A DNA stretch of 64,000 bases from Hemileia vastatrix. Lineage: Eukaryota > Basidiomycota > Pucciniomycetes > Pucciniales > Zaghouaniaceae. Below the pieces are notes generated by a model. The model made no database searches. It saw only the letters and a program-made list of their open reading frames with translations, and was not told the DNA's origin. Shown one piece after another: positions 11,075 to 64,000 of this stretch (its first letter is position 1; each line of letters starts with the position of its first letter). The translations under genes and the position numbers were made by a program. The stretch lies in NCBI GenBank assembly GCA_030280995.1, contig JASXTE010000008.1:2995001-3059000 (forward strand), read 5' to 3'.

Positions 11075-13952
11075 TGAGTCCAGTACAAGTTCGGCCGAAC
11101 TTGTGCTGGACACTTTGGCCAAGACCAGTGAATAAATATTGCAAGGAAAACCAAAAATCAATAGGCTATAAAAGGAAGTTAATTGATGGCATCAAATTGT
11201 TTTTTGGTAAAAGTGTCCAGCACAAGCTCGGCCGAACTTATGCTGGACACTTTTCCAATTTGAAGTTAGTGAGGTGTTCCTCATAAAAGTGTCCAGCACA
11301 AGTTCGGCCGAACTTGTGATGGACACTTTTACCAAAAAAAAAAAAAATGATGCTATCAAATATGTTCATGTTATAGCCTAATTTTTTTTAATTTCCTTGA
11401 AGTAATAAGTTACTGTACATGACCAAAGTGTCCAGCACAAGTTCATCCAAACTTATGCTGGACACTTTTATAATTTGAAGTTGGTAAGGTGCATGTTTTT
11501 TTAAGAGAAGTGAGGTTTTCCTTATAAAAGTGTCCAGCACAAGTTTGGCCGAACTTGTGCTGGACACTTTTACCAAAGACATTAGATAGCATCAATTATC
11601 TTCATTATATGGGCTATTTTTATTGGTTTTCCTTGCAATTTATAGTCACTGTTCTTGGCCAAAGTGTCCAGCACAAGTTCGGCCAAACTTATGCTGGACA
11701 CTTTTATAATTTGAAGTTGGTGAGGTGTATGTTTTTTTAAGAGAAGTGAGGTGTTCCTCATAAAAGTGTCCAGCACAAGTTTGGCCGAACTTGTGATGGA
11801 CACTTTTACCAAAAAAAAAAAATGATGCTATCAAATATGTTCATGTTATAGCCTAATTTTTTTTTATTTCCTTGAAGTAATAAGTTACTCTCCATGACCA
11901 AAGTGTCCAGCACAAGTTCGGCCGAACTTATGCTGGACACTTTTATAATTTGAAGTTGGTAAGGTCCATGTTTTTTTAAGAGAAGTGAGGTTTTCTTTAT
12001 AAATTGGTCCAGCACAAGTTCGGCCGAACTTGTTCTGGACACTTTTACCAAAAAACAATTTGATGCCATCAATTAACTTCCTTTTATAGCCTATTGATTT
12101 TTGGTTTTCCTTGCAATTTTTATTCACTGGTCTTGGCCAAAGTGTCCAGCACAAGCTCGGCCAAACTTATGCTGGACACTTTATTAATTTGAAGTTGGGG
12201 AGGTGTATTTTTTTTTAGAGAAGTGAGGTTTTCCTTATAAAAGTGTCCAGCATAAGTTCGGCCAAACTTGTGCTGGACACTTTTACCAAAAAAAAAATAG
12301 ATGCCATCAAATATGTTCATGTTATAGCCTAATTTTTTTTAATTTCCTTGAAGTAATAAGTTACTGTCCATGACCAAAGTGTCCAGCACAAGTTTGGCCG
12401 AACTTATGCTGGACACTTTTATAAGGAAAACCTCACTTCTCCTAAAAAAACATGCACCTTACCAACTTCAAATTGGAAAAGTGTCCAGCATAAGTTCGGC
12501 CGAACTTGTGCTGGACACTTTGGCCAACACCAGTGACTAAAATTGCAAGAAAACCAAAAATCAATAGGCTATAAAAGGAAGTTAATTGATGGCATCTATT
12601 TTTTTTTTTGGTAAAAGTGTCAAGCACAAGTTTGGCCGAACTTGTGCTGGACACTTTTATGAGGAACATCTCACTTCTCTTAAAAAAACATGCACCTTAA
12701 CAACTTCAAATTATAAAAGTGTCCAGCATAAGTTCGGCTGAACTTGTACTGGACATATTTACCAACAAAAAATTTGATGCCATCAATTAACTTCCTTTTA
12801 TAGCCTATTGATTTTTGGTTTTCCTTGCAATTTTTAGTCACTGGTCTTGGCCAAAGTGTCCAGCACAAGTTCAGCCAAACTTATGCTGGACACTTTTCCG
12901 ATTTGAAGTTGGTAAGGTGCATGTTTTTTTATGAGAAGTGAGGTTTTCCTTATAAAAGTGTCCAGGATAAGTTTGGCCAAACTTGTGCTGGACACTTTGG
13001 TCATGGACAGTAACTTATTACTTCAAGGAAATTAAAAAAAATTAGGCTATAACATGAACATATTTGATGGAATCTATTTTTTTTTTTTGGTAAAAGTGTC
13101 CAGCACAAGTTTGGCTGAACTTATGCTGGACACTTTTATAAGGAAAACCTCACTTCTCTTAAAAAAACATGCACCTTACCAACTTCAAATTGGAAAAGTG
13201 TCCAGCATAAGTTCGGCCGAACTTGTGCTGGACACTTTGGCCAAGACCAGTGACTAAAAATTTCAAGGAAAACCAAAAATCAATAGGCTATAAAAGGAAG
13301 TTAATTGATGGCATCAAATTTTTTGTTGGTGAATATGTCCAGCACAAGTTTGGCCGAGCTTATTCTGGACACTTTTATGAAGAAAAACCTCACTTCTCTT
13401 AAAAAAACAAGCAACTTACCAACTTCAAATCATAAAAGTGTCCAGCATAAGTTTGGCCAAACTTGTGCTGGACACTTTTACCAAAAAACAATTTCATGCC
13501 ATCAATTAACTTCCTTTTATAGCCTATTGATTTTTGGTTTTCCTTGCAATTTTTAGTCACTGGTCTTGGCCAAAGTGTCCAGCATAAGTTTGGCCGAACT
13601 TGTGCTGGACACTTTTCCAATTTGAATTTGTTAAGTGCATGTTTTTTTAAGAGAAGTGAGGTGTTCCTCATAAAAGTGTCCAGCATAAGTTTGGCTGAAC
13701 TTGTGCAGGACACTTTTACCAAAAAACAATTTGATGCCATCAATTAACTTCCTTTTATAGCCTATTGATTTTTGGTTTTCCTCACAATTTTTAGTCACTG
13801 GTCTTGGCCAAAGTGTCCAGCACAAGTTTGGCTGAACTTGTGCTGGACACTTTTCCAATTTGAAGTTGGTAAGGTGTATATTTTTTTAAGAGAAGTGAGG
13901 TTTTCATCATAAAAGTGTCCAGCACAAGTTCAGCCAAACTTGTGCTGGACAC
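11075..13952. repeat. Array of 25 palindromes with alternating, flipped spacers
   Basis: Twenty-five copies of a 38-bp near-perfect palindrome, arm GTGTCCAGCACAAGTTCGG followed by its complement, first at about 11076 and last at 13915-13952. Other copies start at 11213, 11289, 11428, 11530, 11664, 11766, 11903, 12006, 12142, 12243, 12379, 12481, 12617, 12719, 12856, 12958, 13096, 13198, 13335, 13438, 13575, 13676 and 13813. Spacers alternate strictly between a long type (about 95-100 bp; variant A with CAATAGGCTATAAAAGG or variant C with AGGCTATAACATGAAC, or their complements) and a short type B (about 37-65 bp, with AATTTGAAGTTGG). A, B and C each occur in both orientations. Variation within palindromes is mostly C/T at two or three positions. 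It is not a CRISPR: spacers repeat, and open frames across it are by-products of the repeat. Confidence 0.97.
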
Positions 13953-15254
13953 TTTACTCAGAACAGTTTGATGGATTCAATTGTCTACATATTCCTTACC
14001 ATGGTCTTTTGGTAAAGAGGGAAACCTTTAGCTATTGGTAGTTGTTTTGAGTATATTATGAGTAGTTGATATTTCCATTTTAAGGTAAAAGAGTACAATA
14101 TTTTTTGTGATTACCAGTAATTTATTTCCCTCAATATTTCTAAGATATTGGTTATAATTTTTATAACACCTATTTCTAATATTCCTCTTTGATTTGACTA
14201 TTTTTTTAGTCCTAATTTAAAGGTTTTTACTATTTTATCAACCAAGCTTTACATCAATGTAAAAAATACCCTGATTAATCCTGCAATATTTTTTTGACTG
14301 TTACTATTCAATAATAGCTCAAGTTAGAAACATATATCCATTATCTACTTTCTTTTTCAACTTAGTTATCTCAGTGGAAAGTGTTCATCAATTACTATTG
14401 AATGATGTTTACAGTACGTAACGTTGTACAAATCTGTAAAATACTTTAAAAAAATTGTGACTTTGGTAGTTGGTTATTGGATTTTATATGGAAATAATTT
14501 CAAATAATTTTATACTTTATTCATATGCTAAGATTCTTAAGTGTTTCTATTTTTGATTTATTATATCAATTTAACTTTAACTAAGTTTAGACTAGGTTTG
14601 TGCCATGGGGTGTCAGCGCAGCCCAAACGAGCTCCTATCATAGAATAAATTAATTATTTTTAATAATTTTATATAATACTCTTTAGTGTTATCTTTTTTT
14701 ATCCCTTTTTTTTAAATTATCTTTTTCCTTTGTTTTTGTCCCCTATTTTTTATAACACATAAAGATGCCAAAATTTCCAATAATAGATCCCTTTGTCATA
14801 TTGCATGATGTTGATATTTAAAAATTAATTTAAATATTTAAATTAGTTAAACTTATATTCTCAACTATTTACCCTTTGCGATTATCAAATTGTAAATTGG
14901 ACATTTTCTTTGTTTGTCATCCTTCTAAGTTCCCAATGTTTATGTCTAGTTACTTCCCTTTTACTATTAACCCCATTATTATCATCAGACTATTCTACAA
15001 TATGCTCGCTAGCTTTATGCCATTGTAAAAGAACCCCTATCAAAAACCTGCTTCTGGTAATATATAAACCCTCTTGTTTAGTACCACATTTCTCAATTCG
15101 TTTATTTCTCTCAATTTTACTACTATTATCTTTTGGTTATCACATTTATCTGTGTTAGTACAGCTTGAAAATACAAATAGCAATATATATTTTTTATCTC
15201 TTTATTATCTTGATATAAGAATTTTTTATTTTTTTCAAGTAATAAGTCATTAAA
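13953..15254. other. Spacer between palindrome array and family X gene
   Basis: About 1.3 kb, AT-rich. A short GC-richer island at about 14600-14632 (GTGCCATGGGGTGTCAGCGC) stands out, but I cannot assign it. The 5' control region of the family X gene should lie here; no specific promoter motif is claimed. Confidence 0.5.
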
Positions 15255-17679
15255 ATGCCTCGTGATAAACAGACACCTCCTTTATGTAAGATCTATTGCT
15301 TTATCTCTTATATCTTCTTAGACTAACTTTTCTTTTCCATTAATATATTTGATATATTAGCACCAAGTAGTTATTTGACGAAAGCTCTTCAGCATCCTCG
15401 ATTCGAATCCTTCAAACTCAAGAAACAACCACCTCTAGGCATATCTCCAAACCCCCCTTCTCTTGCCAATGAAAGGACTGAAATTACCCGATCTTAATAT
15501 GGCAAGATACTTGAGTTTGCTAAAGGCAAAACTGAAGAACTACTGTCAACTCTTAGCGAGAAGCCTTTGCCATCTTATATTTTGAATGCCTACAACAATG
15601 TGCTTGAATACATTGATGACCTAGAAAAATGTAAGTAATTATTTTATATTAAATTCTTTAAACTCAGAACAATAAATTATGGAAAATTTTTCTTTAAAAC
15701 TTATTCAAATTCAGCTTATGAAAAAGGTATCATTCCTCCTGATGATTTCATTATCATCAAAGATGATGATGATAATGAAATACCTGACGCTGAAGGCTAT
15801 GCATCAACATCTCGAGGGGGAGATAAGACTATTCTTTGGCGTTCAAAAAGAATGAGACTTTCTAGGGGCTCTAGTTTTGTTAGTGCTACTAAAACTCCTC
15901 CTGCCAAGGATTCCTCTTACTCAGCATCTCAAAAATCCAAAAAAACTAGCCAAAATGTGTCGAAAGGGTATGTTATTTCTTTCATGAGTAATATAGCAAT
16001 TAATTTTATATTAGTGTTTAAAGCTATCTCCAAATTGTTTACTTTCTTATTTATAATTTCTTGTCTTTTTCTTATCTTTTAATCCAGCTCTAAAAATGAC
16101 AATCACTCCAAAGCATCAACTAATAGCGAATCTTGCTCTAATGAAGAAGAACTAGAAGAAGAAGATGATGATGAAGTTTCAAAATATGAAGCTTCTCTAA
16201 CTCAAAAAAATGATAAAGCTACTTCTGCTGATGAGGTTGAGAAAACTCTGAATGAAGAAATCGATCCACCTAGCCAGCCACAAAAAAATACTTCAAGTTC
16301 AAAGAAACAGCTTATAGTTTCTGTATCTTCAAAATCTAAAATTGAAATTCCCCAAATCCTACGGTCTCTATCATCATCAATAAAAATTTCTAATAACTCC
16401 CTTCCTTATACTCCAACAATGATTGGAAACTCAAAATTACAGAAGCAAATAGCTGAAATTCATCGATTTTTTGAAGGTAGAATCAATGGTCAAAAGGTAC
16501 TTAGGGCATGGCCAGAAATTGATCAGTTATTTGATATTGGTTTGTCTGCTTCTCTTGAAAAGCCACACGAAATTTCGCAAAAATTCAATTTTCTATGGAT
16601 GAAATCTGCTAATGACAAAATGCTTACAAAAATTAATGAACTCTGTATATATCACTTACTTGAAGTTTGATAATTTATTTTATGATAACTAATTTTTTTG
16701 TTATTTTTTTAGCTTTGGATTTTCTTAATGTTGACACTTTGCAGATCTGGGTGGTCAATAATTTGAACTTTGAAAATTTGGAAAATTTTTGTAACTCTGA
16801 AGAACCAAACTCAAATAATCTTTCTCCATTTAAGAAGACTGATCACCCTGAATCATCGATGATACGCATGCTATCAAGACTAGTTAGCCCAACTGCTCAC
16901 CAGCGTTCTTTTTGGACATCCTTCATCGCATCATCTCTTTATCTTGCTTCTCAAGAGTTTACACTTCCTGCTGAAGAATCCAACTTCAATCCAGATTTTC
17001 CTATTGAACGTGCCCTACATATTCTAGCCTGCCTTACAAATCTGAAAAGCAAAGTTCCCAATACATTCGACAGCTCAACATCACAGTTAATTGCTGAAAG
17101 TTTTTCAATCACTCCCCTATGCCAATTTAGAAACATAATAATCGACGTCATAATTTCAATAATTATTTTAAAATCTAGAGAGGCTGCTGCAAATATAACT
17201 CAAGCTGAAAGCAAGAAACGACAACGTTCGAGGAATAAAAAAAAACAACAGATATGCAGCAATTTGATGAGTCTCATAATGATTCTATTCAGAAGATGAA
17301 TCAAGAATAGGCACACCATAAATATCAATCATTTACTTTTTACTTGGTTGATGGTGTTTGTGGATTATTTCTTTCCTCACAGGACCACCGGCTTGTGTCA
17401 GCTTCAGACTGCTTAGAATTCATAACACAACTCGGCCTCCTTAGAAAATACTGTGATAATAATAATCTGGGTGGTGAAAAAATCTGGAAAAACCTTAATT
17501 TTTATATCTTTAATATTATCAAACCCTTAATAGATAATTCTGAGTCTATGCCACTTAATTTTAATACTCCCACCATGAGCCATATTTCTAAAGCAATGGC
17601 AGCTGATTTTCTTGATTATTGGAATCTTATTAAGCCGAATTCTTCATTTTTCTGTATTGTTGACATAATTAATACATAA
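15255..17679 (+). pseudogene. Family X copy 1, uncharacterised, decayed
   Basis: Five-exon gene whose paralogue lies at 62222-59792. ATG 15255; introns fit at 15286-15360, 15631-15714, 15968-16087 and 16645-16712. The N-terminal half is Ser/Lys/acid-rich and probably disordered (YEKGIIPPDDF, then RGSSFV). The C-terminal half is the conserved part: KIHRF-like helix (EIHRFFEGRINGQKVLRAW), KTDHPESSMIRMLSRL, SLYLASQEF, and GLFLSSQDHRLVSASDCLEF after about 17365. Damage: in-frame TAA 15495, a one-base shift in the A-run near 17237-17245, and TAG about 17310; homology to copy 2 continues past each. I see no known domain or catalytic motif. It is convergent with the TET/JBP-like gene at 20-21 kb, as its paralogue is with the other TET/JBP-like gene, so the pair probably travels together. 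Confidence 0.8.
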
Positions 17680-20178
17680 TCCTACTTCATGTAAATATAT
17701 ACTTTATCCTATTGCTACATTTTTTTGTGTAACTCAAATTATTTATTTATGTGAGATTTATTACCGAATCTGAATAAAGATGCTTAAACTATCAATAAAT
17801 ATTATTGTATAAATTTCTTACACCTTTTTGCTATTCAGTAAATATTATTGCAATAATAATAACTCAAAATCATGATGGATCAAAAATTTGAAGAAAGATT
17901 AAGAATACATTATAAGTCATTTTTCTCATAACACTATATATTTCTTTAAGATGGCAATACATCTTAGCATTTGTTGCAAATTTTAAGATAATTATTACAA
18001 AAAATGAAACATTTTTATATCAATTCTTTTCAGCATGTTAAAAAGTTAAAAATATTAAGTGTAATGAATATTTGCTCACAATTCATCAAAGATTTTTCTT
18101 AAGTAGACTTTTCTTAATCTAATTTCTATAATTTCTAGGTGCATAATTATCTTAATTATACTAAGTATTCTCTATGAAAAACTCCTGGAAATAATATTCA
18201 ATTCATTTAATAATAGTAACATATATATGTACCATGATAAAATAATATCTAGACATTTGAATAATGAGAAGCCATCATATTGGTATGAAATCATATTAAA
18301 GTGTCTTTGAAAAACTAGTTAAATTTAAAAAATATCTTTTTATCAGTGTCAATTATTTTGAAAAATAAAATTTACTCTACATTTTGATGATCTATAATTT
18401 ACCTTGCTGTATTTTGATTCATATTTTATATTGATTATTTTTTACACTTACAGATTCATGTATAGATATCAAATTTTGTTCAATAATTTGGTAAAAAAGA
18501 TATTTAATTCTTTCTATGAAAGCAAAAAAAAGAAAAGAAAGCAACTAGGGTACTCCTTATTAAGAACTTAAAAATATTATTTCTATAAATATTAAAACAA
18601 ACCCTTTTTAGATTTCCATCCTTCTTGTTCATCCTTAAATGTCAATAATAAGTTATTGAAATATTATTTTTCAAGTAGAATTTCATATGAATCAAATTCT
18701 ACTTACATCTACCTGAATAGATCAAGGTCAACAAAAATATATCTACAATCTTTTTCTAGGATTTTAAGATTCATTCAACTCCAAGAAAAAAGAAATATTC
18801 ATCCCAAACTCTAAAAATCAATTCAATGAATAAATATTCAAACACTTCAAAATAAATTTCAATTTGATTGCTTTATATTTATCTTTAAATATATTGAGGT
18901 CCACTCTCTCACAAAAGTAAAAGCCCTTTCATAATTATTAATATTTTATTATAATATAATAAAATTTACTTAAAAATGAAGTAGTAGTTTCTATTTTACA
19001 TACCTTGTTTTATGAATTTTTAAAAAAAATTCAATTAGATATATAGAAATATCATCATATAATTCAGCTTTTTGAACTCTGCACCTTAATTAAAGATAGA
19101 TGATAAAGGCTAAGTCAAGATCTACAAGGAAATTTAAATTCATATTAATTAAATATTCCTCTTGTACAAGGCAATTTTTAAAATTAGAATTAATTTTTAT
19201 TGGAGATCTAAATTGATTGTTAGATTCATTATTCTTAATATATCTCATTTCCTTTTATTGATTATTTCAATTCTACTTTTGCAGTTATATGCTTCAATAA
19301 AATATAATTATGTGATGAAAAATATTCAATTTATCAAAAATAAAATCACAAGTCACACTAGTGTACAAATTTCAGTATATTTAAGATTAAGTAATGCCAC
19401 TAAATTAATTCAAGTTAGATATGAAAGCAAATAATGAATGACTCAAAGAAAAAAATTAATATTTAATTTTACTTTAATTTATTTTTTATTTTTATTTTTA
19501 CTTAAATAAAAATAAAATAATACATGGTTTTACTTTATTTATTAATAAGAAAAAACTTATTGCAAAAATTAGCAAATTTTTAATATTTTTAAAAATAATA
19601 TTAATAGTACAGATCTATTTATGTTGATGCATATGATCTTTTAGGAAGGATTTGTAAGATATTTTTTATTTTTAGTTTCCATTTGCAATAATTAAGCAAG
19701 TTACAAAGCTATATTTTGTTTCTTATATTATATTTTATTATATTTTATTTTACTTGTAGCAATGATAATTTTTTATTGTAACATGGTTTTTAATTTTTAC
19801 ATCCATTTTTTTTGATACTTTTATTGTTTTATGTTTTTCACCAGATTATACATAATCATCAGCTTCATAAAAGGTTTTTTTAGACATGTGTGTAAATATA
19901 TCATTCTACCACTAAACTAAAACTATACCTGTACAATAAAATCACATTTTTACCTATCACTATTTAATGGTCTTTTACTTTTTTTATTAACATGTATATA
20001 AGAATCATTTTCTGTATTTAATTTTTCAATATCTTTAGTAGCATTAAATATATAGTGATTCACTAACTTTCTTTTTTTTTGTTAAATCAGTCTTTTCATT
20101 GTACTTAGAAAGTTTCATCATAAGAAAATTACATCTTTCTAACTCTTCATTTATATTTAAGTACTCAGAAATATCTAT
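17680..20178. other. AT-rich gap between convergent genes
   Basis: About 2.5 kb between the 3' ends of family X copy 1 and the TET/JBP-like copy 1. Very AT-rich; I see no gene, TIR or tandem repeat. The matching gap in the mirrored unit (58994-59791) is only 0.8 kb, so this one may hold an unrecognised insertion. Confidence 0.45.
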
Positions 20179-21238
20179 TTAAAACTCTTGGAGTTTTTTA
20201 AATGTATTGAAAAGTCTTGTACTAACTTGAATAGAAGAGCCAAGGCTAGTGAATCCACCAATTTCATAACATCGTGAAGTGAAATGTTTAAGAAGGTTTG
20301 CTGGCCATAGAATCGGTGTGATGCCATTAGTGGCCTCCATGTCTATTTTGCAAGCTATTTCAGGAAAATGAAGCTCTCCGCCTTTTTGACGTGGTTGATT
20401 TGAGTCATAAGATTGATGAAGAGAATTTTTCTCAGTGTCTTTAGGTATGAAAAGTCCAAATGTATACTCGCTACGGTCTGAGTCACAGTGAGAACTATTC
20501 GAAAACCTGTTTCCATTTGAGCCTGTTGTCCAAGTAACATTGCCAGCAAATGGTTCAATTTCTTCATTGTTAAAATATTCTCCAAACCCAGGAATCCCAA
20601 GCTTTTGACAGAGTTTTACTGCTTCTTGATACTTAACATTAGATATATTTTGATAAAAAAATTTAAAGAATAACTCTTTTCGCTTCATGCAACAAACATA
20701 CTCTGCCAAATCTAAGGGCTTAGAAGCATATTTACCTAAAAAAGTAATTAAAATAATAATAGATTAAAACTATTCATAAATAAAACTATATAATACTTAC
20801 CAATTAATAGAGACTTTTTCCATCTAAACAATGATCACCAACAAACATATTACCAAATCCACCACCATTTTTATGAGCTTTATTTTGCAAAACTCGATGT
20901 TCACAATACGAAAAGTCTTTGATGCACTGAATTGTTGCTTCAAGCATGTTTAATCAAATGAGATCTTCAATAGAAAATGTTTTCACTATAACACTTGGAA
21001 TTGAGGAGCAGATCGGATGGAAAATATAACAGCTAGAATTTGAAATCAAATACCGTTCTGGATTAACTAAATTTTTTACAAAACTCCTAGAAAAATATTT
21101 TGCCCTCTTCCCATCTGTCTCAACACCATAATTTTCAACCATAAGTAATGCATTCTCGATGTTTTTCACATGCTTGTTGTTTGATTTTTTTCCTCGGTGG
21201 TGATTTTTCTTTATAAAAAAACTTTGTGAAGCCTGCAT
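20179..21238 (-). pseudogene. TET/JBP-like 2OG-Fe(II) dioxygenase copy 1, decayed
   Basis: Paralogue of the gene at 57.1-59.0 kb. Exon 1 begins at ATG 21238 and runs to about 20805; the intron (GTAAGTATT donor) ends near 20739; exon 2 runs to 20179. The double-stranded beta-helix core keeps the HxD iron ligands in SSHCDSDRSEYTFGLF (about 20490-20445), GGELHFPEI, then ILWPANLLKHFTSRC with the distal His, and GSSIQVSTRL with a possible 2-oxoglutarate Arg. Intact members oxidise 5-methylcytosine in DNA or RNA. Damage against copy 2: in-frame TGA at 20954, a one-base loss near 20822 before the splice donor, and TAA 20179, after which IDISEYL-type homology still continues to about 20090. Assignment rests on motif order and on known expansions of TET/JBP genes in rusts; overall divergence is high. 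Confidence 0.75.
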
Positions 21239-25007: not shown

Positions 25008-25250
25008 AATTTGGCAATACCCTCCCCTGAATTTCATTATATTAGGGGTTGGTGATTGCCATTTTTTCATGTCAAAAAATTTCTTTATGTCTGAAAAAAA
25101 AAATGGCAATACCTCATCCTGAATTTTACTGTGGGAGGGGGTGGAAATTGCCATTTTTTTTCATGTCAAAAAATATTTATGTAAGAAAAAAAAATTTACA
25201 ATACCTCCTCCTGCAACTTACTGTGGGAGGGGGTAAAGATTACCAAATTT
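25008..25250. repeat. Three tandem imperfect hairpins inside the TIR element
   Basis: Three units of about 95 bp, each with a left arm like GGCAATACC(T)CNTCCTG and a right arm like GGGAGGGGGTnnnnATTGCC, separated by an A/T-rich linker containing TTTCATGTCAAAAAAT. Arms start near 25013, 25103 and 25197. The arms pair only imperfectly. Confidence 0.7.
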
Positions 25251-27396: not shown

Positions 27397-27429
27397 CTCC
27401 CTCACTCTAAAAAAACAATAAAAAAAATG

Positions 27430-48615: not shown

Positions 48616-48621
48616 ACCACA

Positions 48622-50558: not shown

Positions 50559-50589
<31 letters not shown>

Positions 50590-52297: not shown

Positions 52298-52346
<49 letters not shown>

Positions 52347-53046: not shown

Positions 53047-53877
53047 CACCACGCAATATGGGGGGCGGACTTGCTAGCAAGTCCACAACCTTGAACCCTA
53101 ATTCATATCTTTTTGAGCACACATTGAGGAAGTGATGAAACCATCATGAAGAAGTATTGAATTTACTTTGAACACAAATGGGGCTACAAGGGCCGGAAAG
53201 GCTGGAGAGAGGGGTGAGGAAGGGTGTATGGGGTAGCGAAAAGGTTGGGAAAGAGTTGGAAGGGAAGATTAAGGGTTCCGAGGCATTTTAAATGAAGAAA
53301 AGGGTCTGGGAGAGGTTGAGAGGGGTGAAATGGGGATCAAAAGAGGATGGCATACAATGGGGCTGGGAGGATAGCGAAAGGCATGGGAAGGGAAGACAAG
53401 CATGTGTTGATAGAATTGAAAGGGATGGAGATTGGTGCAAACAGAGTGTGAAAATAGGAGGATGAACTCTGTTCTTTGGGCAAAGAACAGAGTTCACTTC
53501 CATAAAATATTAGCTGAAACAAAACAGAGTGTGAAAATAGGAGGATGAACTCTGTTCTTCGGGCGAAGAACAGAGTTCACTTCCATAAAATAGTAGCTGA
53601 AACATAGTTTTCAATTCTGTAAAAACAGTTGTAGGTAATAGAAAAAGTCACTGATCTTCAAAAAATACTTTGCATTGAGTAGACTCATGGAATGATTTTT
53701 TCTGGCTTCCATTCAGTTATCCTCACACTTTCACTATGTTTTCAATATAGATCCATTGTTATTTGTGTGATACTTCAAGTGAAAGTTCAGTATTACTTCA
53801 GTCTGAGTTCCATCTGATTTCCATCTGACTTCAAGTTGCGGACTTGCTAGCAAGTCCTCCCCCTATATTGCGTGGTG
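53047..53877. mobile_element. 831-bp MITE with CACCAC termini and TAA duplication
   Basis: Left end CACCACGCAATATGGGGGGC then GGACTTGCTAGCAAGTCC; right end is the complement with two or three differences (GGACTTGCTAGCAAGTCC, then CCCCCTATATTGCGTGGTG). TAA stands directly outside both ends (53044-53046 and 53878-53880), a 3-bp duplication as made by PIF/Harbinger-like and some other transposases. No transposase inside; a GGG-rich segment at 53160-53420 and a tandem hairpin repeat at 53441-53603 fill it. Family is inferred only from the TSD length. Confidence 0.88.
53441..53603. repeat. Tandem 83-bp repeat, each with a 34-nt hairpin
   Basis: Two copies with an 83-bp period. Each holds a hairpin with arm TGAACTCTGTTCTT (53463-53496 and 53546-53579) around a GGGC loop. 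The base pair next to the loop is T-A in copy 1 and C-G in copy 2, so both arms changed together. Confidence 0.93.
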
Positions 53878-53880
53878 TAA

Positions 53881-55334
53881 GTTCAAAGCTGCACATCACT
53901 ACTTCAAGATGAAACTCCATATAATGTAATCAATGAATGATATATTATAATGAATTTTACTAGAGACTTTTCAAAAATGGTGATTAAGAATACTTATTAT
54001 AATTTTTTAAATTTTTATTATTATTCTATCTCTTGAAAGGAGATGGCCATATCTCAATTTAATTAGTTTTTCCTCAGAAAAATTTATTCTTGATATAAAT
54101 AAAATTGCATCACTATTAACTAGATGTTATTATACAATTTTAACAATTTTTTTATCTGAACATAGTTGAAAGTATGTATAAATTAAAGTGTTTCCACATA
54201 GTCTTACTATTATCCCACCATTATTTTCACATTTAGATTTCATTATAACTGTAAAATAAGTTTTTCAATAATTTTAATAATACCTTAATATTTAATAATT
54301 TAGTTACATAGTAGATTTTTTATCCTTTTTTTTTATGAGGCTTATTATATAAACACTACTTTTAGATTTTATCCATTTTGATGTCTGATAATTTAAATTT
54401 TCATTTAACTACCCAAATTATATCAAAAAAAATTCAAAAGTATATTTTTTTAATGTACTCTTTTTGATAAACTTATCATTTCTTATAGGTTATTCTTCAA
54501 CTATTTATTGTAATTAACTACCCACTCATTTATGGTCTGTTATTGTTGTTCATTAAATACAGACAAAATAAGGATACTCTCATATTATATTGGAGTTTTA
54601 AATTAAAAAGTAAATACTAGTGGCTGGTATTAAATATGAAGTTGTTATAACTAAGTTGAACATTAATTAATTATTAAATGGCATTTTATATTACAAATTT
54701 TATTGAATGTATATAAAAATAACACTCAAGAAATATATATAAGATATATATATAACCATTGTATATCAAAAATGAAGTACTTATCAACATGGTCTTTTTA
54801 AATGATTTTCAAATTTACTTAAAGAGACATTAATATTACCAATTCAAATTTTATATCAAATACAACAATATTATTATTTCATTTTTAATTATTTTACAAA
54901 AAATTTGAGTTTCAAAGTAATTTAATTCAGTATTTAATGAATGTTTTTGAAAAATATTTTTAAAAATAGAAATAACCCCTCACAAAAAAAAATATAATTT
55001 TTTTTACTTACAATTTGCACCATATTTCTACCCTTAAAATATTTGTATTCTTCTAACAAAAATATTTTTTAAATAAATTTAAAAATTTTTTCATTATTCA
55101 ATTACAAAATGTCAAATTTATAATTTATTTTACCTTACTAAAAAATTTAGTTGAAAATTTAATTTTGTATTTCCAAAAAATAAACTTAAATGTCAAAAAT
55201 TAAAAAAACAAAATTATAAATATAATTATGAGAAAGAGGTAGATTAAATTTATAATATTCATATAAAAAAAATTCATATATTTTATGGTGTTTGAATTTT
55301 AAATTTAATGTATTAAAAATTAATTATTAAATAA
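53881..55334. other. AT-rich stretch, nothing recognised
   Basis: About 1.45 kb, extremely A/T-rich, no gene or repeat supported. It ends abruptly at the GC-richer hairpin cluster. Confidence 0.5.
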
Positions 55335-56037
55335 CCAAGCCAAATGAAATTGGCTTGGATTTTTGGTATCACTAGAACTTATTTTTTTTCTTATACTCAC
55401 ATTTTAATTTTTAATTTTTTTTTTCTACATTTCTCATTTTTTTTTTATGATTTTTAATGTTTTTAAGACCGAAGTTGCTTTCAAACAACTTCGGTCTAAC
55501 GTTTCTCTCACTTTCCCACCAGATTGCACCTGGTAGGGAAAGTCGCTTCCATTTTAGAGACCAAAGTCCCTTGCAGGGACTTTGGTTTCTCTGTGTGCAT
55601 TGCACAGCCAGAAAAAAACTGGCTGTGCAATGCACTGCATGCAGCACATGCAACACGCATCGCTGCTGCAAGTAATGCGCATTGCATGCAGCAGAAATGC
55701 GCGTTGCACATGCTGCGCATATCTCATGCAGCTGACTTGATATCAGCTGCATGAAATATGGTAGCGATTGTGCAACGCGCGTTACTTGCAGCAGCAACGC
55801 GCGTTGCACACTGCTTTGGCCACCTCCCAGCCTAGTAAATTAGATGGGAGGGTGGCAAACATAACAGCAAGCAATCGAAGTCGCTTTTAGCGACTTCGAT
55901 TGCTTGAAAGAGACACTTCCAGCCAGGGGAAACCTGGCTGGAAGTACTAAATTGCAATGTAAGGGACCCAAGCCAATTTCAAAGGCTTGGGTCATAAATT
56001 AAGGTTTCTAAAAAGCAGCCAGTATAAATCTGGCTGC
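55335..56037. repeat. Hairpin cluster B (about 11 stem-loops, GC-rich core)
   Basis: Consecutive unrelated stem-loops: CCAAGCCAA..TTGGCTTGG (55335), GACCGAAGTTG..CAACTTCGGTC (55468), GACCAAAGTCCC..GGGACTTTGGTT (55559), TTGCACAGCCAG..CTGGCTGTGCAA (55599), CATGCAGCTGA..TCAGCTGCATG (55724), GTGCAACGCGCGTT..AACGCGCGTTGCAC (55769), CCTCCCAGCC..GGGAGG (55826), CAATCGAAGTCGC..GCGACTTCGATTG (55873), CTTCCAGCCAGG..CCTGGCTGGAAG (55917), GACCCAAGCC..GGCTTGGGTC (55966) and GCAGCCAG..CTGGCTGC (56015). The core 55625-55810 is a dense nest of GCATGC, TGCAGC and GCGCGTTGCAC words. Same design as cluster A and at the same place relative to the neighbouring dioxygenase gene. Confidence 0.92.
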
Positions 56038-57081
56038 AATAAAAAGTAAATTTTTTAAATAAAATACATAAAAAAATAAAAATTTGTTCAAATAAAATAT
56101 ACAACACTCTTTCTCCAGTAAGAAACAGCCTTCCATTGTTACACATAGAAACAAAATCAAATGTTTCTTTCATCAACATTGGCCATGTTTCAATATTTTG
56201 AACCAAGTAAGATCAGGAAAAAGGTCACAGCAAAAAAATTGCATAATTAAAAGTCTCCCAATTTAATATGGTGCGGAGGTTCATATTTTAGAAATAGGTG
56301 GTGCACATTATAGTTTCCTTTAAAAAAATTCAAAAATGAATTAATTTTGGCGCAATGTAAATTTAAATGTGATGAGTGTATGTTTTTTAGCTACGTGAAA
56401 CATGGTAGCTAGAATTATGTGGCGTCAATTTTTTTTAGATGTGAAATTCAGTGTTCCACAAATGTGCATCTGTACAACATGCAGCCAAGTAAATTCTAGC
56501 TGGAATTAGTATATGCATGGGAAAAAATGATCATGCTGTGTACAGTGCCTTGGCAACATCATTCTTGGAATTTAGATGAAGTTTATCATATGACTTGGTG
56601 AGCTGCATTTTTTTGAAAATGTGATCAGTGAAAATTCATGATATATACATCTGTTTGCCACCCGATTTATTTTTCCTTTCTCTTTCTCACTTACCTTTTT
56701 CAAAAATTATCAATCATATTTTTGCTTTATCATTTTGAATTATTGGTACTATTTTCTTGACCTTATCTGATTACCGGTAAGCAAATTTTTCTTGCTATTG
56801 CATTTCATATCATTTTGGTTTGTTACACTTTTTTACACTTTTGACAAGTTAATCTAATGATTCTAATTCTGAATTTATTTTTATGGTATCTTTTACTGTA
56901 CCCTTTCGATTCATTATAAAATAATTCTTTTTCAGTTAACTTAAAGTTTTTTTATTTGTTTGTCAATTTACTTTTCTTTATTCCTTATCAAAAATGTTCA
57001 ATTTATTTATCTAACCATTTATTTTTTAAAACAGTGATTATAAAATAAACTTTATAATTAATTTTGATCAATCAGCTACAA
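56038..57081. other. Upstream region of TET/JBP copy 2
   Basis: About 1 kb, AT-rich, probably promoter and 5' untranslated sequence of the dioxygenase gene. No specific site supported. Confidence 0.4.
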
Positions 57082-58993
57082 ATGGAAGAAGATTTTATAG
57101 ACATGTAAGTTCATGTTTTGCTTATCATTTTTCTATATTTCTTTAATACTTTCTCAACCATTATATTATTAATATGAAAAGTAAAACATCATCTCGTACT
57201 TGCTGAAAGCATACAGGATAATGTTTTGCTTTTCATAATAATAATTAGATTGTTTGTACTTTACCTTTAATTTATTGATTTTTAAGTTGTTTCAAAGTCT
57301 CGTACTTGCTGAAAGCATACAGGACAATGCTACAATTTAAAAATTAATAATTTTTTGAAGTATAACTTTCTAAGTCAATATATTGATCAGAGCAAGATTT
57401 TTCATTTTATATATGTGGATATCATAATTCCGTAAATTTTTTAATATTACTAGTGTATTGGAGTTATACTTTCATTATATTATTAATATTAAGTGTAGAG
57501 CCAAATCTCGTACTTGCTGAATGCATACAGGATAAAGCTATACTCTTTATATGTATAATTTAATAAAGTATACCTTTGAAACGCTTTCTTAATATTTGAA
57601 ATAAAGAAAAAGTATATAAATTTACTAATATGTAGATATGCTAACTTTTGTATTTCTAATATTGAAGATATGATAAAGTTAAAGGTATCATTGACTGATA
57701 ATTGAAATTATGTTACTATTTTCTAATTTTTGATTTTTTTCTATTTTAAATCAAAATTGAATTCTCTTAGGATTGAACCATCAATGAGTAACGATTTGAA
57801 AAAAAAAAACGGCCAGGGAAGAACTCTAACAATAGGTGGGCGAAAGACATTGATACTGGAATGAAACTTGTAAACGCTCTTGGAATGGATACAAACGGGA
57901 AGAAGCCACATTTCTATGCACGATCTTATGCAAATAATATGACAGATTGCAATAATTATTACAATTTTTTTCCTGGATGTAGTATTTATAAACCAAAAGG
58001 TGTCTTAATACCTAATGTTCTTGTGCAGACTTTTGAAATTCATGAGCTCAAAGAACTAGATATGTTAGAAGCTACGGTGCGATGCATTAAGGATCTTTCT
58101 TACTGCGAACATGAAATTAAAAATAATGGTTATCATCAAAGAGCTGGTGGTTTTGGAAAAATGTTTGGTGGTGGCTTTATTTTAGATAGAAAGAAATCTT
58201 TACATATTCGTAAGTATCACTTTTTTTAATTTAAATACTGAATTTTTGAATGCTTTTCCTTGCAGATGAATACACTGATGATATTGTAAAAACGGATGAA
58301 TATAAAAAACGAATGAAGAGGATTGCAATGTACTTTGAATATTTTTTTAAAAAAATATCATATGTAAAGTACAATGAGGCAACTAATCTTTGCGCAAAAC
58401 TTGGTATTCCTGGATTTTCAAAAGTTTCTAGTGAAGAAGAGGGTGTACCGTTTGCTAGTAATTTAACTTGGACATCTGGAGGGAATGGTAATGGGTTCTC
58501 TAATGAGGTTCATCTCGATAAGGATGCAAGTGAGTATACTTTAGGAATATTTTTTCCTAAAGATACAGAAAAAAACACCATTCATATGAAGTATGATAAG
58601 ACCCAACCACGACAAATAGGTGGAGAACTTATGTTTCCCGAAATTCGAAGTAAAATCAACTTTGAAGCAACTAATGGAATAACAGTGACATTATGGCCTG
58701 CCAATCAACTAAGGCATTTTACCTCAAGATGTCATGAAATTCCTGGCTTCACTAGGATAGGTTCTTCTATTCAAATCAGCACTAGACTTTTTCATGCTAT
58801 AGAAAAGCTTAATGTTTTTGATATTGATATTTCAGAATACTTAGAAATTAAAAAAGAAAAATTTAGGTTAGAATATTTGATTAGTGCTTTGAGAGTTTTT
58901 TTGAAAAGAGATGACTTAATAGAGGAAGAAATAGAATCAGCAAAGTATTATTTATCTAATGTTAAGACAAATCTAAAAAATCTAGATATATAA
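57082..58993 (+). CDS. TET/JBP-like 2OG-Fe(II) dioxygenase copy 2
   Basis: Predicted iron- and 2-oxoglutarate-dependent dioxygenase; TET/JBP enzymes oxidise 5-methylcytosine or thymine in DNA. Exons 57082-57104, 57771-58209 and 58266-58993 (introns 57105-57770 and 58210-58265, GTAAG donors, AG acceptors), about 395 residues. Exon 2 has a basic start, then MKLVNALGMDTNGKKPHFYARSY and LEATVRCIKDLSYCEHEI. The catalytic part, in exon 3, shows NLTWTSGGNGNGF, the HxD ligands HLD at 58511-58519 (HLDKDASEYTLGIF), GGELMFPEI, LWPANQLRHFT with the distal His, and GSSIQISTRLF with a candidate 2OG Arg. A Lys/Glu-rich helical tail follows. The A-run at 57799-57809 has 11 A; 12 would restore the frame from ATG 57082, so this is either a sequencing slip or a one-base lesion. 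Otherwise intact, unlike its paralogue at 20-21 kb. Confidence 0.75.
57192..57535 (+). repeat. Three copies of a 29-bp motif in the first intron
   Basis: TCTCGTACTTGCTGAAAGCA followed by TACAGGA occurs at 57192, 57298 and 57506, all in the same orientation and almost unchanged (one A/T and one T/C difference), while the sequence between them is unrelated AT-rich DNA. The motif was not seen elsewhere in the window. Confidence 0.93.
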
Positions 58994-59791
58994 ATATTAA
59001 AAATTTATATTATATATACACAACTTAATGCAAATTTAAACATGATAAATACTGGGAGTAGCTGTAACATTTTCAGTTTTGATAATTATAGTATTATCTA
59101 TTTTTTTTATTTGTGAAATAAAATAATTTTTTTTCATAATATTATAAGAAAATTTGATTTACTTTTGAGGAAATATATAAGTTGTGAAATCTTTAAATGT
59201 CATTTTTATTAAATTGGTAGCAAAGGTTCTAAAATAAAAAAACTATAATAAAGAATTTGAAATATATTAGCCATAAAAATGTGCATTTAATGCTACCAAA
59301 TTAACTGTATAGTATTTTAGGTCAAACAGGCTTATTAATAAAAAAGGTAATAATAAAGAGTTGAAGAAAGAATTTTGAATCAATAATAGATTAAATTGTA
59401 TTTTTTTAAGAATGTACTCATTTAATTATTTAAATTGTTCTACTTCTGATTAAAAATGTTACAATCAACGAAAATATTTGTAATAAATAATAGATTATAT
59501 AATATTAAAGGTAAAGTAACAAAACTAGAGCAGTTATCATATTTTTATATAAACAATAAAATATTTAAGAATTTAATACAAGTATTTGAAATCATATAAG
59601 TAGATTTTAAAATCTTTGTTATTGCTGGACTTACAATAATTTTTTTTAATAATTAATTTAGAAAATCATGTCAAAGGTTACTTAATAAATTTCAAAGATG
59701 GTCACATTTTTGACGTATTTGAAGGAAAATAACTTGAATTATACAAGATATATCATATAGACAGAACTTTATCTATTTACATGTTGGAATA
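58994..59791. other. Gap between convergent TET/JBP copy 2 and family X copy 2
   Basis: About 800 AT-rich bases between two converging 3' ends; no terminator motif or gene can be supported. Confidence 0.5.
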
Positions 59792-62222
59792 TTAATTTAT
59801 TGAAAGGCTATGTTTAGCAAAAAAAGGTGATACTGGCTGAATGGAGCTCCAGTGATTAAAAAAATCTGCAGAAATAGCCCTAGCAATTCCCGGAGGACTT
59901 GGGGTATCAAATTTTAAAGGAAATGGATCACACTTGCCTATAAAAGGTTTTATTAATGTTAAAATATAGTTATTTAAATTTTTCCAAATTATTTCTTCCA
60001 TCAAATGATTTTTTTTTTCATGTAAATTAAGAAACTTAACTTCTGATATTACCTCCAAGCAATCAGCTGCTGAAGCCAATCTATGATCTTGAGAGCTCAG
60101 AAATAAACCACGGACACCATCAATTATATAGAATGTGAAAGATTGATATCGGTGGTGGGAGTATTCAGAATTTATTTTGTTTAGTGCAGCCTTTTGTTTC
60201 TCTCTCATTATAGTCAGTTCAGTATTTTCGTTTTTCTCACTTGATTGTTGAGCTTCACTAGTCTTGCCACTTGATATTGTTGCAGCACAATATTTTGATT
60301 TAAGAATGATAATTGACATAATTATATCAATGATAATATTGCTGATTTGAAGAAGAGTTGACATTGATATATCACGGGTTTGAAGTGCAGTGGGACCAAC
60401 TTCTAAGCCATCAGAAATCGGACTCTTCAGATTTGAAAGGTGAGCTAGAAGCTGAAGACCACGTTCAATTGGACAATCTGAGTTAATGTTTTGATGTGAT
60501 GGAAGCTGGCTGAATTCATGTGCGGTCAGATAAAGTGAAGATGATATAAGAGATACCCATGAAGAATGGCAGTGGTCACTTGGGATCATTAATCTCATGA
60601 GCATTCGGATAAGATTGGATTCAGGGTGATCCGTTTTCTTTGTTGAGGAAAGAATTTCAGTATTTAAACCATCAGGATCACATAAATCTTCCATTTTTTT
60701 GAAATCAATATTATCGAGTACCCATAGCTGTGAGCTATCAATCTCTAAAAAAATATTTGCTACAAAAGGAAAAAAAAAATAAGTAAAAGAACAAAAGTCA
60801 AGACTAAAAATTATGGTAACTTACATAACTCAGTAAGTTTTGAAAGCCAATCTTCTCCACAAGATTTTTCCCAATGAAAAGTAAACATTGGAATATTTGA
60901 CATGGGTTCTTGGGAATAAGTAGAAGAGCGTAATTCGAGGAGAGTAACAATTTCCAACCACGACCTGAGCACCTTTGCCGTGCTGATTCTACCTTTATAA
61001 AAATTATGAATTTTACAGAATTCCTCCTGCAAATCAGATTCTTTTAGAACTGAGGGTGAATAAGTTAGAGGTTTTTTCGATATCTTGATTGGAGTTGATT
61101 TCATTGGTAGAGAAGCTTTCAGAATGGTCAAAGTAGGTAATTTAGGAGGTGATGGGTATTGCTTCTTAGAAATGAAAGAATTTGGTGATGAGCTGTTTGA
61201 ATCATCATCTTTATCAAACATATCAACATGTCTTGAAGAAGATTTTAAACTTTGCTTTTTTTGATGAACAAGCATAGCTTCATATTCTGATAGTTGATCA
61301 TCGCTATTTTCATTGCTCTTTTCATCATCTTCATCAGGGAGAGGGCGTTTATGGATGGAACAATCTACAGCAGGTGAGTTTCTGGTACAAAATATCAAAA
61401 GAAAGATAAAAAGTACAATATGTAAGCAATAAAAGAGATATATGATTGAATTTTAAAGATAAAAGAATAACAATAAAAAAAAAGGAAACAAGAATATACT
61501 CATTATCAAAACCTTTGCTTTTTTTTTGAGATTTATTATTTGATACATCAGAAAATTCATTAGCAGAAGCCGGTTTAATACGTCGAACAAAAGAGGAGCC
61601 TTGGGATAATCTCTTTTTCTTGGAGCGGATAACAGGTGTTTCAAGATTTTCCTTAGAAGTTGAAGCATGAGTTGAAGCTGATGGTTCATCTGTCTCATCA
61701 TCATCCCTAATGACAATGACTTCATCAGGAGGAATCATACCCTCCTCATAAGCTACAAATATATATGAAGAAAAAAAAATATTAATAATCTTATCTACTA
61801 ATTTAAAAGGAGACAAAAAAGGTGATGAACATACATTTTTCAAGGCTTTTCACATATTGGAGTAATTTATTACAAGGGTTAGATAAATATGAAGGAGAAG
61901 GATTATTGTTAAGGATCTTGACAAGCTAATCTGTTTTATCTCTAGCCAATTCAAGTAAATTGTGATACTTAACTCTTGTTATTTCCTGCCTCTCATTGCT
62001 AAGTACAGGAGGGTTAGGTGCCATGCCATGTGGCAGACATGGTGCAAGCTCAAAAGCTTCAAAGCGAGTATCAATCAGAGAGTGGGATGAAACACATTTG
62101 GGTGCTGGAAAATCAAATTTTTGAAAAAAAAAGATATAGAACATAAGTGAAATATATAAATTAAGAGAGAGGAACATGATATACATACAAAGTGGAGGTG
62201 TAGGATTTTGTATACTAGACAT
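59792..62222 (-). pseudogene. Family X copy 2, uncharacterised, one stop
   Basis: Minus-strand paralogue of 15255-17679 with the same exon layout. ATG 62222; exon blocks near 62222-62189, 62105-61890, 61755-61500, 61375-60830 and 60757-59792. Blocks shared with copy 1: NERxEITR, YEEGMIPPDEV, LSQGSSFV, KIHNFYKGRISTAKVLRSW, KTDHPESNLIRMLMRL, SSLYLTAHEF, GLFLSSQDHRLASAADCLE and a C-terminal ADFFNHWSSIQP. The N-terminal half is Ser/acid-rich and likely disordered; the C-terminal 300 residues look globular and helical. The only lesion I see is TAG 61926-61928, where copy 1 reads GAA (Glu) at the matching place. Function unknown; no motif of a nuclease, helicase or transposase is recognised. It converges with the TET/JBP-like gene at 57-59 kb. 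Confidence 0.8.
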
Positions 62223-63254
62223 ATTGATTAATGAATATTAAAAAAAAGTATTCGATATCAAAAAATTATGATGTAATATGATGAATAATTATAAGAAACT
62301 CTATTCTAGAAAATTGAAGTTGATATTTTAATAGGATAAAAAATTGAATAAGATTAAAATTAAAGTGAGGATGAAAGAAACAGAAAACATAAAGAGGGGG
62401 ATTTTATATTATTTGAGCTTTTTTTAACATGTATTATTCATAGTGGGGTAAACTGAGTAACATGCTAAATCACAATCTGTTTATATTGAAGCGAAATTTG
62501 ATGTAGCTAACAGAAAATACTAGTAATTCTTTGGGGACTTTTAGTGTGAAAAACAAATAATAACAAATTTATATCCCATATTCAAATTGCCACGGGTAAA
62601 TACAAAATTTTTTAAATTAGAATTTACTCCTAAACAATGGAGATACACTTAATTAGTATATTATATGAAAAAAAGGATAATCCTTTATGAATATTTGTTA
62701 AATTTAATTTCAGATGACAATGCGAGATTCACATATATACTGATATGCCTCATCAAACAAGAAATGAATTATAAATATAAAATTGGTAACATTAGAATTT
62801 AAGATAAGAATTTGTTTTTTAAGTGACAGGAGGAGTGTCAGGCTAGGGTGTTGGCACCGTGACCAAACCTTTGATAAACTTGGATACAACTAAGGGAAAA
62901 AAAAATTGAATAGTTTTATTTTGCAATATATCTTAGTCTGCACAAGATATTGCATTGTTGTCCCTAACTATACCAAAATTGTTACTTTTCAAAAGTTATA
63001 GGACTACTAAGTTGATAAAATATTATTATGAATCACTTAATGAAATACCTTAAGCAACATTCAAAATTATTAAAATATTAATATTCAATTTGAGATTTGG
63101 ATTAGCTAATTTTTCACAACTTACCACAGTTTTGATTAATATAATAAAACTTGAAAAAAATTGTTGAGATAACCTAGAAATGGGTGCAAGAAAATGATGA
63201 AACATATGACTTGAAACTTAACTCATACACTATTGATAAACTTCATGGATCCTG
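62223..63254. other. Spacer between family X copy 2 and palindrome array 2
   Basis: About 1 kb AT-rich, holding the presumed promoter of family X copy 2. TGTCAGGCTAGGGTGTTGGC at 62838 resembles an LTR edge (compare the complement of TTAGCCTGACA at 41240), a possible solo-LTR remnant. Confidence 0.4.
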
Positions 63255-64000
63255 ATTAATTTCTATCGAAATTAATTTTGAGACTAGCATATTGAATTTT
63301 AGCTATGACCAAGTACCGTAAGTGCCATGGTTTGTATTCAATATATTGGTGTTGAAATTAATTTTGATAGGAATCAACAAGTATCAGATGGCACCATGCA
63401 TGAAACACTGACAGAAACCATCAAATTTATGAGGCAATGAACCTCATAATTTCGATCGAAATTAATATAGACCCCTGCATATTGAATACAAGCCATTTCA
63501 CATGGACTACACAGACATAGATAAAATTCAACATGCATGGCTTAATATTAATTTTGATCGAAATTAACCAAGGCATTAAAACATCAATTTTTATATGGTG
63601 TACTTGATCAAACCAGTTTATCTAACTGCTTAGCTTACCTATACTTATAGGAATTTTATGCATAGTCCATGTCCATATTAATTTCAATCGAAATTAATGT
63701 TGACTAATACATAATGAATACATGCTATGCCACTTACACTTTCCAGGCATAGCTACCATTAAATATGCCAGTATCAAAAATTAATTTCGATTGAAATTAA
63801 TGAGCATGATAATCATGAATTTCTGGAGTCAACTGCTTATTTTTATGCATGGTGCCTTGCCAACATTAATTTCGATCGAAATTACTTTTGATACTGGCAT
63901 ATTGCATGTATATATGCCTGGAAAGTGTAAGTGGCATAGTGTGTATTCATTATGTATTGGTCAACATTAATTTTGATCGAATTTAATGTTGACATTTGCA
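63255..64000. repeat. Palindrome array 2 (22-bp cores), runs off the window
   Basis: Eight copies of the palindrome ATTAATTTCG followed by ATCGAAATTAAT, starting at about 63255, 63355, 63446, 63547, 63677, 63780, 63865 and 63966. Two spacer types alternate. The spacer 63887-63965 is the complement of 63699-63779 (shared words GTAAGTGGCATAG and complement CTATGCCACTTAC), and the spacer 63802-63864 is partly the complement of 63375-63445 (GCACCATGCAT). So spacers again flip at the palindromes, as in the 11-14 kb array, though no sequence is shared between arrays. Confidence 0.92.

What the first reader, a model, noticed from the sequence alone, without database searches (positions are those of the whole stretch)
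11075..64000. Mirrored four-part unit: palindrome array, family X gene, TET/JBP gene, hairpin cluster
The same order occurs twice in opposite orientation. Left: palindrome array (11.07-13.95), family X (15.3-17.7, +), TET/JBP-like (21.2-20.2, -), hairpin cluster (23.1-23.75). Right: hairpin cluster (55.3-56.0), TET/JBP-like (57.1-59.0, +), family X (62.2-59.8, -), palindrome array (63.25 onward). Distances match: array to X start 1.3 and 1.0 kb; dioxygenase to hairpins 1.9 and 1.0-1.75 kb. The proteins are clearly homologous but well diverged, and the palindromes differ completely, so this is not an assembly duplicate. I infer a composite mobile or selfish unit in which a predicted methyl-cytosine dioxygenase and an unknown partner are kept between two kinds of foldback DNA. 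TET/JBP genes linked to KDZ transposons are known in basidiomycetes; this arrangement with palindrome arrays and no KDZ transposase in between is not one I know.
Basis: partly seen in the sequence, partly recalled or inferred. Interest (0 to 1): 0.88.

Follow-up and report, generated by a model that had tools for sequence, protein, structure and literature searches.

The report
Giant jumping gene with DNA demethylase
The mirrored units are the inner parts of two complete, oppositely placed copies of a very large six-gene jumping element in an AT-rich, fungus-like genome; it carries its own TET-type methyl-cytosine oxidase, and the right-hand kind has recently spread into more than a hundred nearly identical copies.

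Summary
The mirrored order is real, but it is the inner part of something larger. Beyond each palindrome array lie four more genes, in the same order in both copies: B, a tnp2 (CACTA/EnSpm) transposase, A and an SNF2 helicase. Both units are complete CACTA-type transposons with CACC...GGTG ends and 3-bp target duplications. Right: 28,595 bp, window 48615 to extended coordinate 77209, AAG. Left: -648 to 37598, ATA, split by nested elements. They are two independent insertions of two old families. The right family is young: at least 118 X and 150 TET copies at 99-100% (capped lists). Of 13 copies checked, 12 showed both ends and 11 matching duplications. Copies decay by C-to-T at CpG, above all TCG, which suggests cytosine methylation. 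TET-bearing rust DNA transposons, EnSpm included, are published (PMC12730594), so this is a variant of a known kind. That X and the array steer TET to the element is plausible but untested.

The parts
1..37598 (+). Left CACTA-type element (starts off the window at coordinate -648, L062 position 1852; ends here), old and broken, target duplication ATA
   Evidence: 5' terminus and 3' terminus with matching ATA flanks
249..2690 (+). Left SNF2 helicase gene, apparently broken (frames read by eye)
   Evidence: PF00176 E 7e-26 and 1e-17; 52-69% identical to right copy
2668..3782 (-). Left gene A (unknown; shares a C-terminal stretch with gene B)
   Evidence: 55-62% identical to right copy; A/B similarity E 1e-6 for the right copies
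4850..8280 (+). Left tnp2 (Transposase_21) CACTA transposase, frame apparently broken
   Evidence: PF02992 E 1.1e-10; 60-63% identical to right copy
8594..10340 (+). Left gene B (unknown)
   Evidence: 29-60% identical to right copy by frame
11073..13955 (.). Left palindrome array, 25 copies of a 44-bp palindrome, core AAGTTCGGCCGAACTT
   Evidence: 24 of 25 CpGs lie in the cores
15255..17679 (+). Left family X gene, broken by an in-frame stop and a frameshift
20047..21241 (-). Left TET/JBP dioxygenase gene, with an in-frame stop
   Evidence: PF20515 E 1.2e-20
23105..23750 (.). Left hairpin cluster
   Evidence: z -22
37560..37598 (.). Left element 3' inverted terminus with near-palindrome, followed by ATA
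48615..64000 (-). Right CACTA-type element (continues off the window to extended coordinate 77209; 28,595 bp), target duplication AAG
48615..48655 (+). Right element terminal inverted repeat (41 bp, 95% identical to the other end), holding the palindrome GGGGTATTGCTAGCAATACCCC
53047..53877 (.). Small non-autonomous CACTA-like element nested in the right element, target duplication TAA
   Evidence: empty site in the L030 copy
55324..56045 (.). Right hairpin cluster
   Evidence: (z -27)
57083..58993 (+). Right TET/JBP dioxygenase gene (three exons by eye, open)
   Evidence: PF20515 E 2.5e-22; at least 150 genomic copies of the last exon at 99-100%
59792..62223 (-). Right family X gene; this copy has a stop in exon 2 that the other 29 of the 30 loci lack
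63250..64000 (.). Right palindrome array (continues to about 65195), core AATTTCGATCGAAATT; beyond it off-window lie gene B, tnp2, gene A and SNF2

Best explanation
Each unit is the 3' half of a 25-29 kb CACTA/EnSpm-type DNA transposon with six genes, in the order SNF2, A (opposite strand), tnp2 transposase, B, palindrome array, X, TET (opposite strand), hairpin cluster, then an AT-rich tail. Shown: both inserted as whole elements with 3-bp target duplications; the right family spread recently to more than a hundred places; its copies decay by C-to-T at CpG. Inferred: the tnp2 protein cuts and pastes the element at its CACC...GGTG ends, the host methylates its CpGs, and the TET enzyme oxidises 5-methylcytosine on the element so that its genes stay on. 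Inferred more weakly (about 0.35): X binds the palindrome array, a run of CpG-bearing sites just upstream of its own gene, and brings TET (perhaps with the SNF2 remodeller) to it, so that each family un-silences its own copies.
For: Same six-gene order in both copies, the right one's other half lying off the window. Right tnp2 PF02992 E 2.8e-14, SNF2 PF00176 E 1e-25, Helicase_C E 5e-9, TET PF20515. Ends, inverted repeats and target duplications: matching duplications in 11 of the 12 copies in which both ends were found, of 13 examined; left copy ATA/ATA. Copy number at least 118 (X, all 118 listed frames open) and 150 (TET, 148 of 150 listed without stops); lists capped. Mean pairwise divergence 0.5% in 30 loci; 30 transition events at 70 CpG positions against 34 at 1131 other C/G positions (odds ratio 24, p 4e-23, variants present in at most 8 loci); TCG 20 of 26 against 10 of 44 other NCG (p 1.4e-5). 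CpGs gathered in palindrome cores, 18 of 23 right and 24 of 25 left. X is among the most diverged genes between the families (39-46% by frame, against 60-63% for tnp2), as expected if it tracks a changing target.
Against: No methylation, expression or binding data. X has no Pfam match above cut-off, only one hit in the protein search, 99% identical and from an unnamed source, and no usable structure model (mean pLDDT 33.5). X is not alone in its divergence: one B frame is 29% and the first TET frame 41% identical. The palindrome CpGs are not protected: between two full copies 8 of 28 CpG dyads in the array are decayed against 20 of 195 in genes, and the array differs at 38 of 1944 bases against 72 of 15246 in genes. 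In the left array 17 of the 21 non-CpG transitions fall in two mirror-image columns outside CpG, so not all its variation is CpG decay. The array lies in the middle of the element, not near its ends. A third TET family has neither X nor array in the 8.5 kb read.
Confidence: 0.85

Rival explanations
1. A composite unit whose ends are the foldback structures themselves (array at one end, hairpin cluster at the other).
For: Both structures flank X and TET in both copies.
Against: Other copies stay homologous far past both structures, to 48615 and 77209, where inverted repeats and matching 3-bp duplications sit.
Confidence: 0.02
2. One locus duplicated in inverted orientation (segmental duplication or large inverted repeat), later diverged.
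For: Mirror order in one window.
Against: Different target duplications (AAG and ATA), each family dispersed over many contigs, and protein identities of only 29-69% between the copies while right-family copies differ by 0.5%.
Confidence: 0.02
3. The array is a binding platform for the transposition machinery (transposase or the A/B proteins), like the subterminal repeats of Spm bound by TnpA (recalled), and X is only a neighbour.
For: Arrays of short repeated sites are usual in CACTA elements (recalled); the ends also hold a palindrome.
Against: The array is about 12 kb from the 5' end and 14.6 kb from the 3' end of the right element, next to X; the small element at 53047-53877, which shares the end design, has no such core.
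Confidence: 0.25
4. Array and hairpin cluster are upstream control regions of X and TET (enhancer, boundary or hairpin RNA), unrelated to where TET acts.
For: The array ends 1.0-1.3 kb upstream of X in both families and the hairpin cluster 1.0-1.9 kb upstream of TET; the hairpin scans show no such structure at the other four genes.
Against: Nothing direct; compatible with the addressing model.
Confidence: 0.35
5. TET, X, A, B and SNF2 are passive cargo picked up by a CACTA element.
For: TET genes move between unrelated rust transposons (PMC12730594).
Against: Same gene order kept in two families at mostly 40-69% protein identity; the listed X and TET copies are nearly all open, though the lists favour intact copies.
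Confidence: 0.1

Closest known systems
TET+ EnSpm DNA transposons of rust fungi (Kojima 2025, PMC12730594)
   Same: Tet-like dioxygenase inside a CACTA/EnSpm element with CAC...GTG ends and 3-bp target duplications; same proposed role, escape from methylation.
   Different: The parts of the paper that I read describe no SNF2 helicase, X, palindrome array or hairpin cluster in them (term searches 'SNF2' 0, 'hairpin' 0, 'palindrom' 1). Its supplement with consensus sequences and gene content could not be read, so a relative may already be there.
PHISTA (Harbinger-like) TET+ transposons, same paper
   Same: TET, transposase and a third, unexplained protein.
   Different: TA target duplications and a Harbinger-type transposase; here 3 bp and tnp2.
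KDZ (Kyakuja-Dileera-Zisupton) elements with TET/JBP genes (Iyer et al. 2014, recalled; not held)
   Same: Transposon-borne TET/JBP.
   Different: Different transposase; KDZ duplications are 7-8 bp per PMC12730594.
Arabidopsis VANDAL elements with VANC anti-silencing proteins (PMC5735166, PMC10398659; abstracts and outlines read)
   Same: An element-encoded protein acts on tandem repeats in the element's own noncoding DNA; repeats vary between related elements. The present layout (X beside a family-specific repeat array) looks alike.
   Different: Different host; here a TET enzyme is also encoded, the repeats are palindromes with CpG cores, and no binding is shown. Relation of X to VANC was not tested.

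Membership tests
CACTA/EnSpm superfamily | tnp2/Transposase_21-type transposase | tested here: met
   PF02992 in both copies, 781-aa open frame on the right
CACTA/EnSpm superfamily | CAC...GTG termini with inverted repeats | tested here: met
   CACCAC...GTGGTG, 41 bp at 95%; left CACCGAG...CATGGTG
CACTA/EnSpm superfamily | 3-bp target site duplication | tested here: met
   11 of 12 right-family copies with both ends located, 13 examined; left copy ATA
CACTA/EnSpm superfamily | DDE residues with C2C and H(3-4)H motifs of the CMCT clade | not tested
   Motifs known from PMC12730594; not aligned here
TET+ EnSpm of rusts (PU type) | Encodes a Tet-like 2OG dioxygenase with HxD...H | tested here: met
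   PF20515; HLD and HCD, then HFTSR, read by eye in the translations
TET+ EnSpm of rusts (PU type) | Dioxygenase falls in the PU clade | not testable with these tools
   No PU sequences at hand; the protein search gave no TET hit
TET+ EnSpm of rusts (PU type) | Host is a Pucciniomycete | tested here: inconclusive
   Genome unnamed; AT-rich, 748 Mb, TCG-biased mutation as described for Pucciniomycotina in PMC12730594
KDZ transposons | KDZ transposase | tested here: not met
   No KDZ match among the 40 frames scanned with Pfam (some scanned twice, not all frames of the elements); transposase is tnp2
VANC-type anti-silencing | Element's own noncoding DNA holds tandem repeats that differ between related families | tested here: met
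   Arrays of two families; 3 of 4 further left-type copies carry the left array
VANC-type anti-silencing | Protein is homologous to VANC | not tested
   X pieces have no Pfam match above cut-off; VANC itself was not compared
VANC-type anti-silencing | Protein binds the repeats and causes methylation loss | not testable with these tools
   Needs binding and methylation data

The most novel reading that the evidence does not exclude
X and its family-specific palindrome array are an address system: X reads a CpG-bearing palindrome that only its own family carries and brings the element's TET enzyme (and SNF2 remodeller) to it, so that a giant transposon erases methylation on itself and leaves the rest of the genome silent. 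X and palindrome would change together, which would explain why both are among the fastest-changing parts.
Probability: 0.3. Interest if true: 0.88.

Novelty: new variant of a known kind. Interest (0 to 1): 0.64.

Why it matters
Transposon-borne TET genes are known, but how they would find their own element is, as far as I know, open. Here a young family with more than a hundred near-identical copies sits beside old relatives in one genome, with a candidate targeting protein, a candidate target array and a mutational record that looks like methylation. That makes self-targeted demethylation directly testable. The element is also large (26.9 kb without and 28.6 kb with two nested small elements) and carries an SNF2 helicase.

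Tried and rejected
Foldback structures as element ends: rejected by the copy alignments. Inverted repeats within the window as ends of the left unit: none convincing; its 5' end lies off the window and its 3' end beyond the stretch searched. Dioxygenase and X homologues in the large protein database: none for TET, one 99% hit for X; the database may hold few rust proteomes (inference). Solved structures by sequence: none for X or TET. Rfam and tRNA scans of the window: nothing. AlphaFold model of X: mean pLDDT 33.5, so no fold search was made. Third TET family as a test of generality: no X and no array in the 8.5 kb read, a result against a general X-TET pairing. Transposase and terminal-repeat searches of the genome did not complete (129, 132, 133, 136). 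Paper searches for such an element listed, in the rows shown, nothing close but Kojima 2025; only open-licence papers are held. Passages of PMC12210899 were seen and not used.
Full report
Observation. The four parts exist at the stated coordinates in both halves and are far above chance. X right and left match over four stop-to-stop frames at 32-54% protein identity, and both dioxygenases match PF20515. The hairpin clusters share individual hairpins. The two arrays share a palindromic core, AAnTTCGnnCGAAnTT, which occurs in the window only there. By hand, the two 8-base half-sites agree at 6 of 8 positions, which I put at about 1% by chance; this is an estimate, not a tool result.

What lies beyond the unit. 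Left of the left array are gene B, a tnp2 transposase, gene A on the other strand and an SNF2 helicase. If these belong to the unit, the same genes should lie beyond the right array, off the window. They do: L031 and L032 (window coordinates 64001-84000) hold B, tnp2 with a 781-aa open frame, A and SNF2 in mirrored order. Protein identities between the two copies by frame: tnp2 60-63%, SNF2 52-69%, A 55-62%, B 29-60%, X 39-46%, TET 41-55%. A and B share a C-terminal stretch (24% over 98 residues, E 1e-6 for that one comparison). X, A and B have no Pfam match above cut-off in the frames scanned.

Ends. Comparing the right copy with other copies gives common limits at 48615 and 77209, with CACCACAGAAAA...GTGGTG ends, a 41-bp inverted repeat (95%) that contains the palindrome GGGGTATTGCTAGCAATACCCC, and AAG on both sides. 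I examined 13 copies: window, L003, L005 and ten more that I picked from the listed loci. Both ends were located in 12 and the duplications match in 11; in L017 they differ, and for L012 only one end was found. For four of the ten neither end was where first predicted. One of these (L030) was read in full and lacks two 831-bp nested elements; the other three were then found with the corresponding shift. L030 gives clean empty sites for both nested elements, with TAA and ACA duplications. Its own length is 26,932 bp with AAT on both sides. The left copy begins at coordinate -648 and ends at 37598 with ATA on both sides and the same end design. It is interrupted by what looks like another element at 23988-36669 (30-nt inverted ends at 87%), which itself holds a Gypsy element at 26262-35420.

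Age and copy number. The genome is 747.6 Mb in 791 contigs. The last X frame of the right copy has at least 118 copies at 99-100%, all listed ones open, and the last TET exon at least 150 at 99-100%, 148 without stops; both lists are capped (118 scored of 4138 candidates, 150 of 8543) and favour intact copies. A left-type X frame has at least 150 copies, 82-94% identical apart from the window's own, many with stops. The 30 right-family X loci (the window's included) align over essentially all 4026 bases, TET 3' exon included, with mean pairwise divergence 0.5%. The window's right X carries a stop that the other 29 loci lack; intact copies exist. The left copy's X and TET are broken.

Mutation record. 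Among the 30 loci, 30 transition events were counted at 70 CpG positions against 34 at 1131 other C or G positions (variants in at most 8 loci, relatedness of the copies not modelled), mostly in TCG (20 of 26 sites against 10 of 44 other NCG). In the left array 26 of 100 CpG-position cells are transitions against 21 of 450 other C/G cells (p 1.6e-9); 17 of those 21 lie in two mirror-image columns, and the cells are not independent. PMC12730594 describes TCG hypermutation in Pucciniomycotina, and PMC8444563 (passages) CG methylation of young transposons in a rust. CpGs of the arrays lie mostly in the palindrome cores (18 of 23 right, 24 of 25 left). They are not protected: between two full copies 8 of 28 array dyads are decayed against 20 of 195 in genes, 1 of 21 in hairpins and 5 of 28 elsewhere, and the array differs at 38 of 1944 bases against 72 of 15246 in genes (nested elements left out).

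Mechanism. Shown: a six-gene CACTA-type transposon that moved as a whole and spread recently. Inferred from the families involved: tnp2 transposes it; TET oxidises 5-methylcytosine on it. Inferred from layout only: X, whose gene starts 1.0-1.3 kb from the array and which is among the fastest-changing genes, binds the palindromes and directs TET. The likeness to VANC proteins and their tandem-repeat targets is one of layout, not of membership. The hairpin cluster upstream of TET has no assigned role; a regulatory or RNA role is open.

Generality. In 3 of 4 further left-type X copies the array is present, with 15, 22 and 15 cores at up to two mismatches; in the fourth a right-family element is inserted at that place. 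A third TET family (at least 150 copies) has neither X nor array in the one 8.5-kb stretch read, on its 3' side.

Papers. PMC12730594: abstract, methods and results in part, section 3.4 and the first part of the discussion, figure legends and passages. PMC5735166 and PMC10398659: abstract and outline. PMC8444563 and PMC12210899: passages. Iyer et al. 2014 and Spm/TnpA are recalled.

Verdict. A real, mobile and recently active unit; a new variant of the known TET-bearing CACTA/EnSpm transposons, notable for size, six genes including SNF2, CpG-palindrome arrays and hairpin clusters.

Noticed in passing
window 23988-36669: What looks like an element with inverted ends (TAGGGCATCTCAAACTTGAT..., 30 nt at 87%) inserted in the left transposon and itself split by a Gypsy retrotransposon (26262-35420, LTRs 98% identical).
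   Followed up: partly
window 37655-38914 and L062 1-1852: The left transposon appears to have landed in an older Gypsy-like element: its flanks match 32967-34225 (67%) and 31039-32890 (80%) respectively.
   Followed up: partly
window 53047-53877 and extended 65266-66096: Two 831-bp non-autonomous elements with CACCACGCAATATGGGGGGCGGACTTGCTAGCAAGTCC ends, present in the window copy of the large transposon and absent from the L030 copy, so mobile recently.
   Followed up: partly
window 57159-57577: Three near-copies of a 55-88 nt sequence (TCTCGTACTTGCTGAAAGCATACAGG...) inside the first intron of the right TET gene.
   Followed up: no
G000:C194:26748445, 26785962, 26823479: Three hits of the third TET family at exactly equal 37,517-base steps, which suggests a tandem triplication of a 37.5-kb stretch.
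   Followed up: no
window 11073-13955: Segments between palindromes in the left array occur in both orientations (read by eye), as if palindromes had promoted inversions; spacing mostly alternates 102 and 137.
   Followed up: no
G000:C338:15674494 and 15686788: Two right-family X copies 12.3 kb apart in the same orientation; for the first only one element end was found at the predicted place.
   Followed up: no
extended 82489-82775 (L032 8488-8775): Fragment of a third TET family in at least 150 copies, the others 58-88% identical to it, without X or array in the one stretch read.
   Followed up: partly
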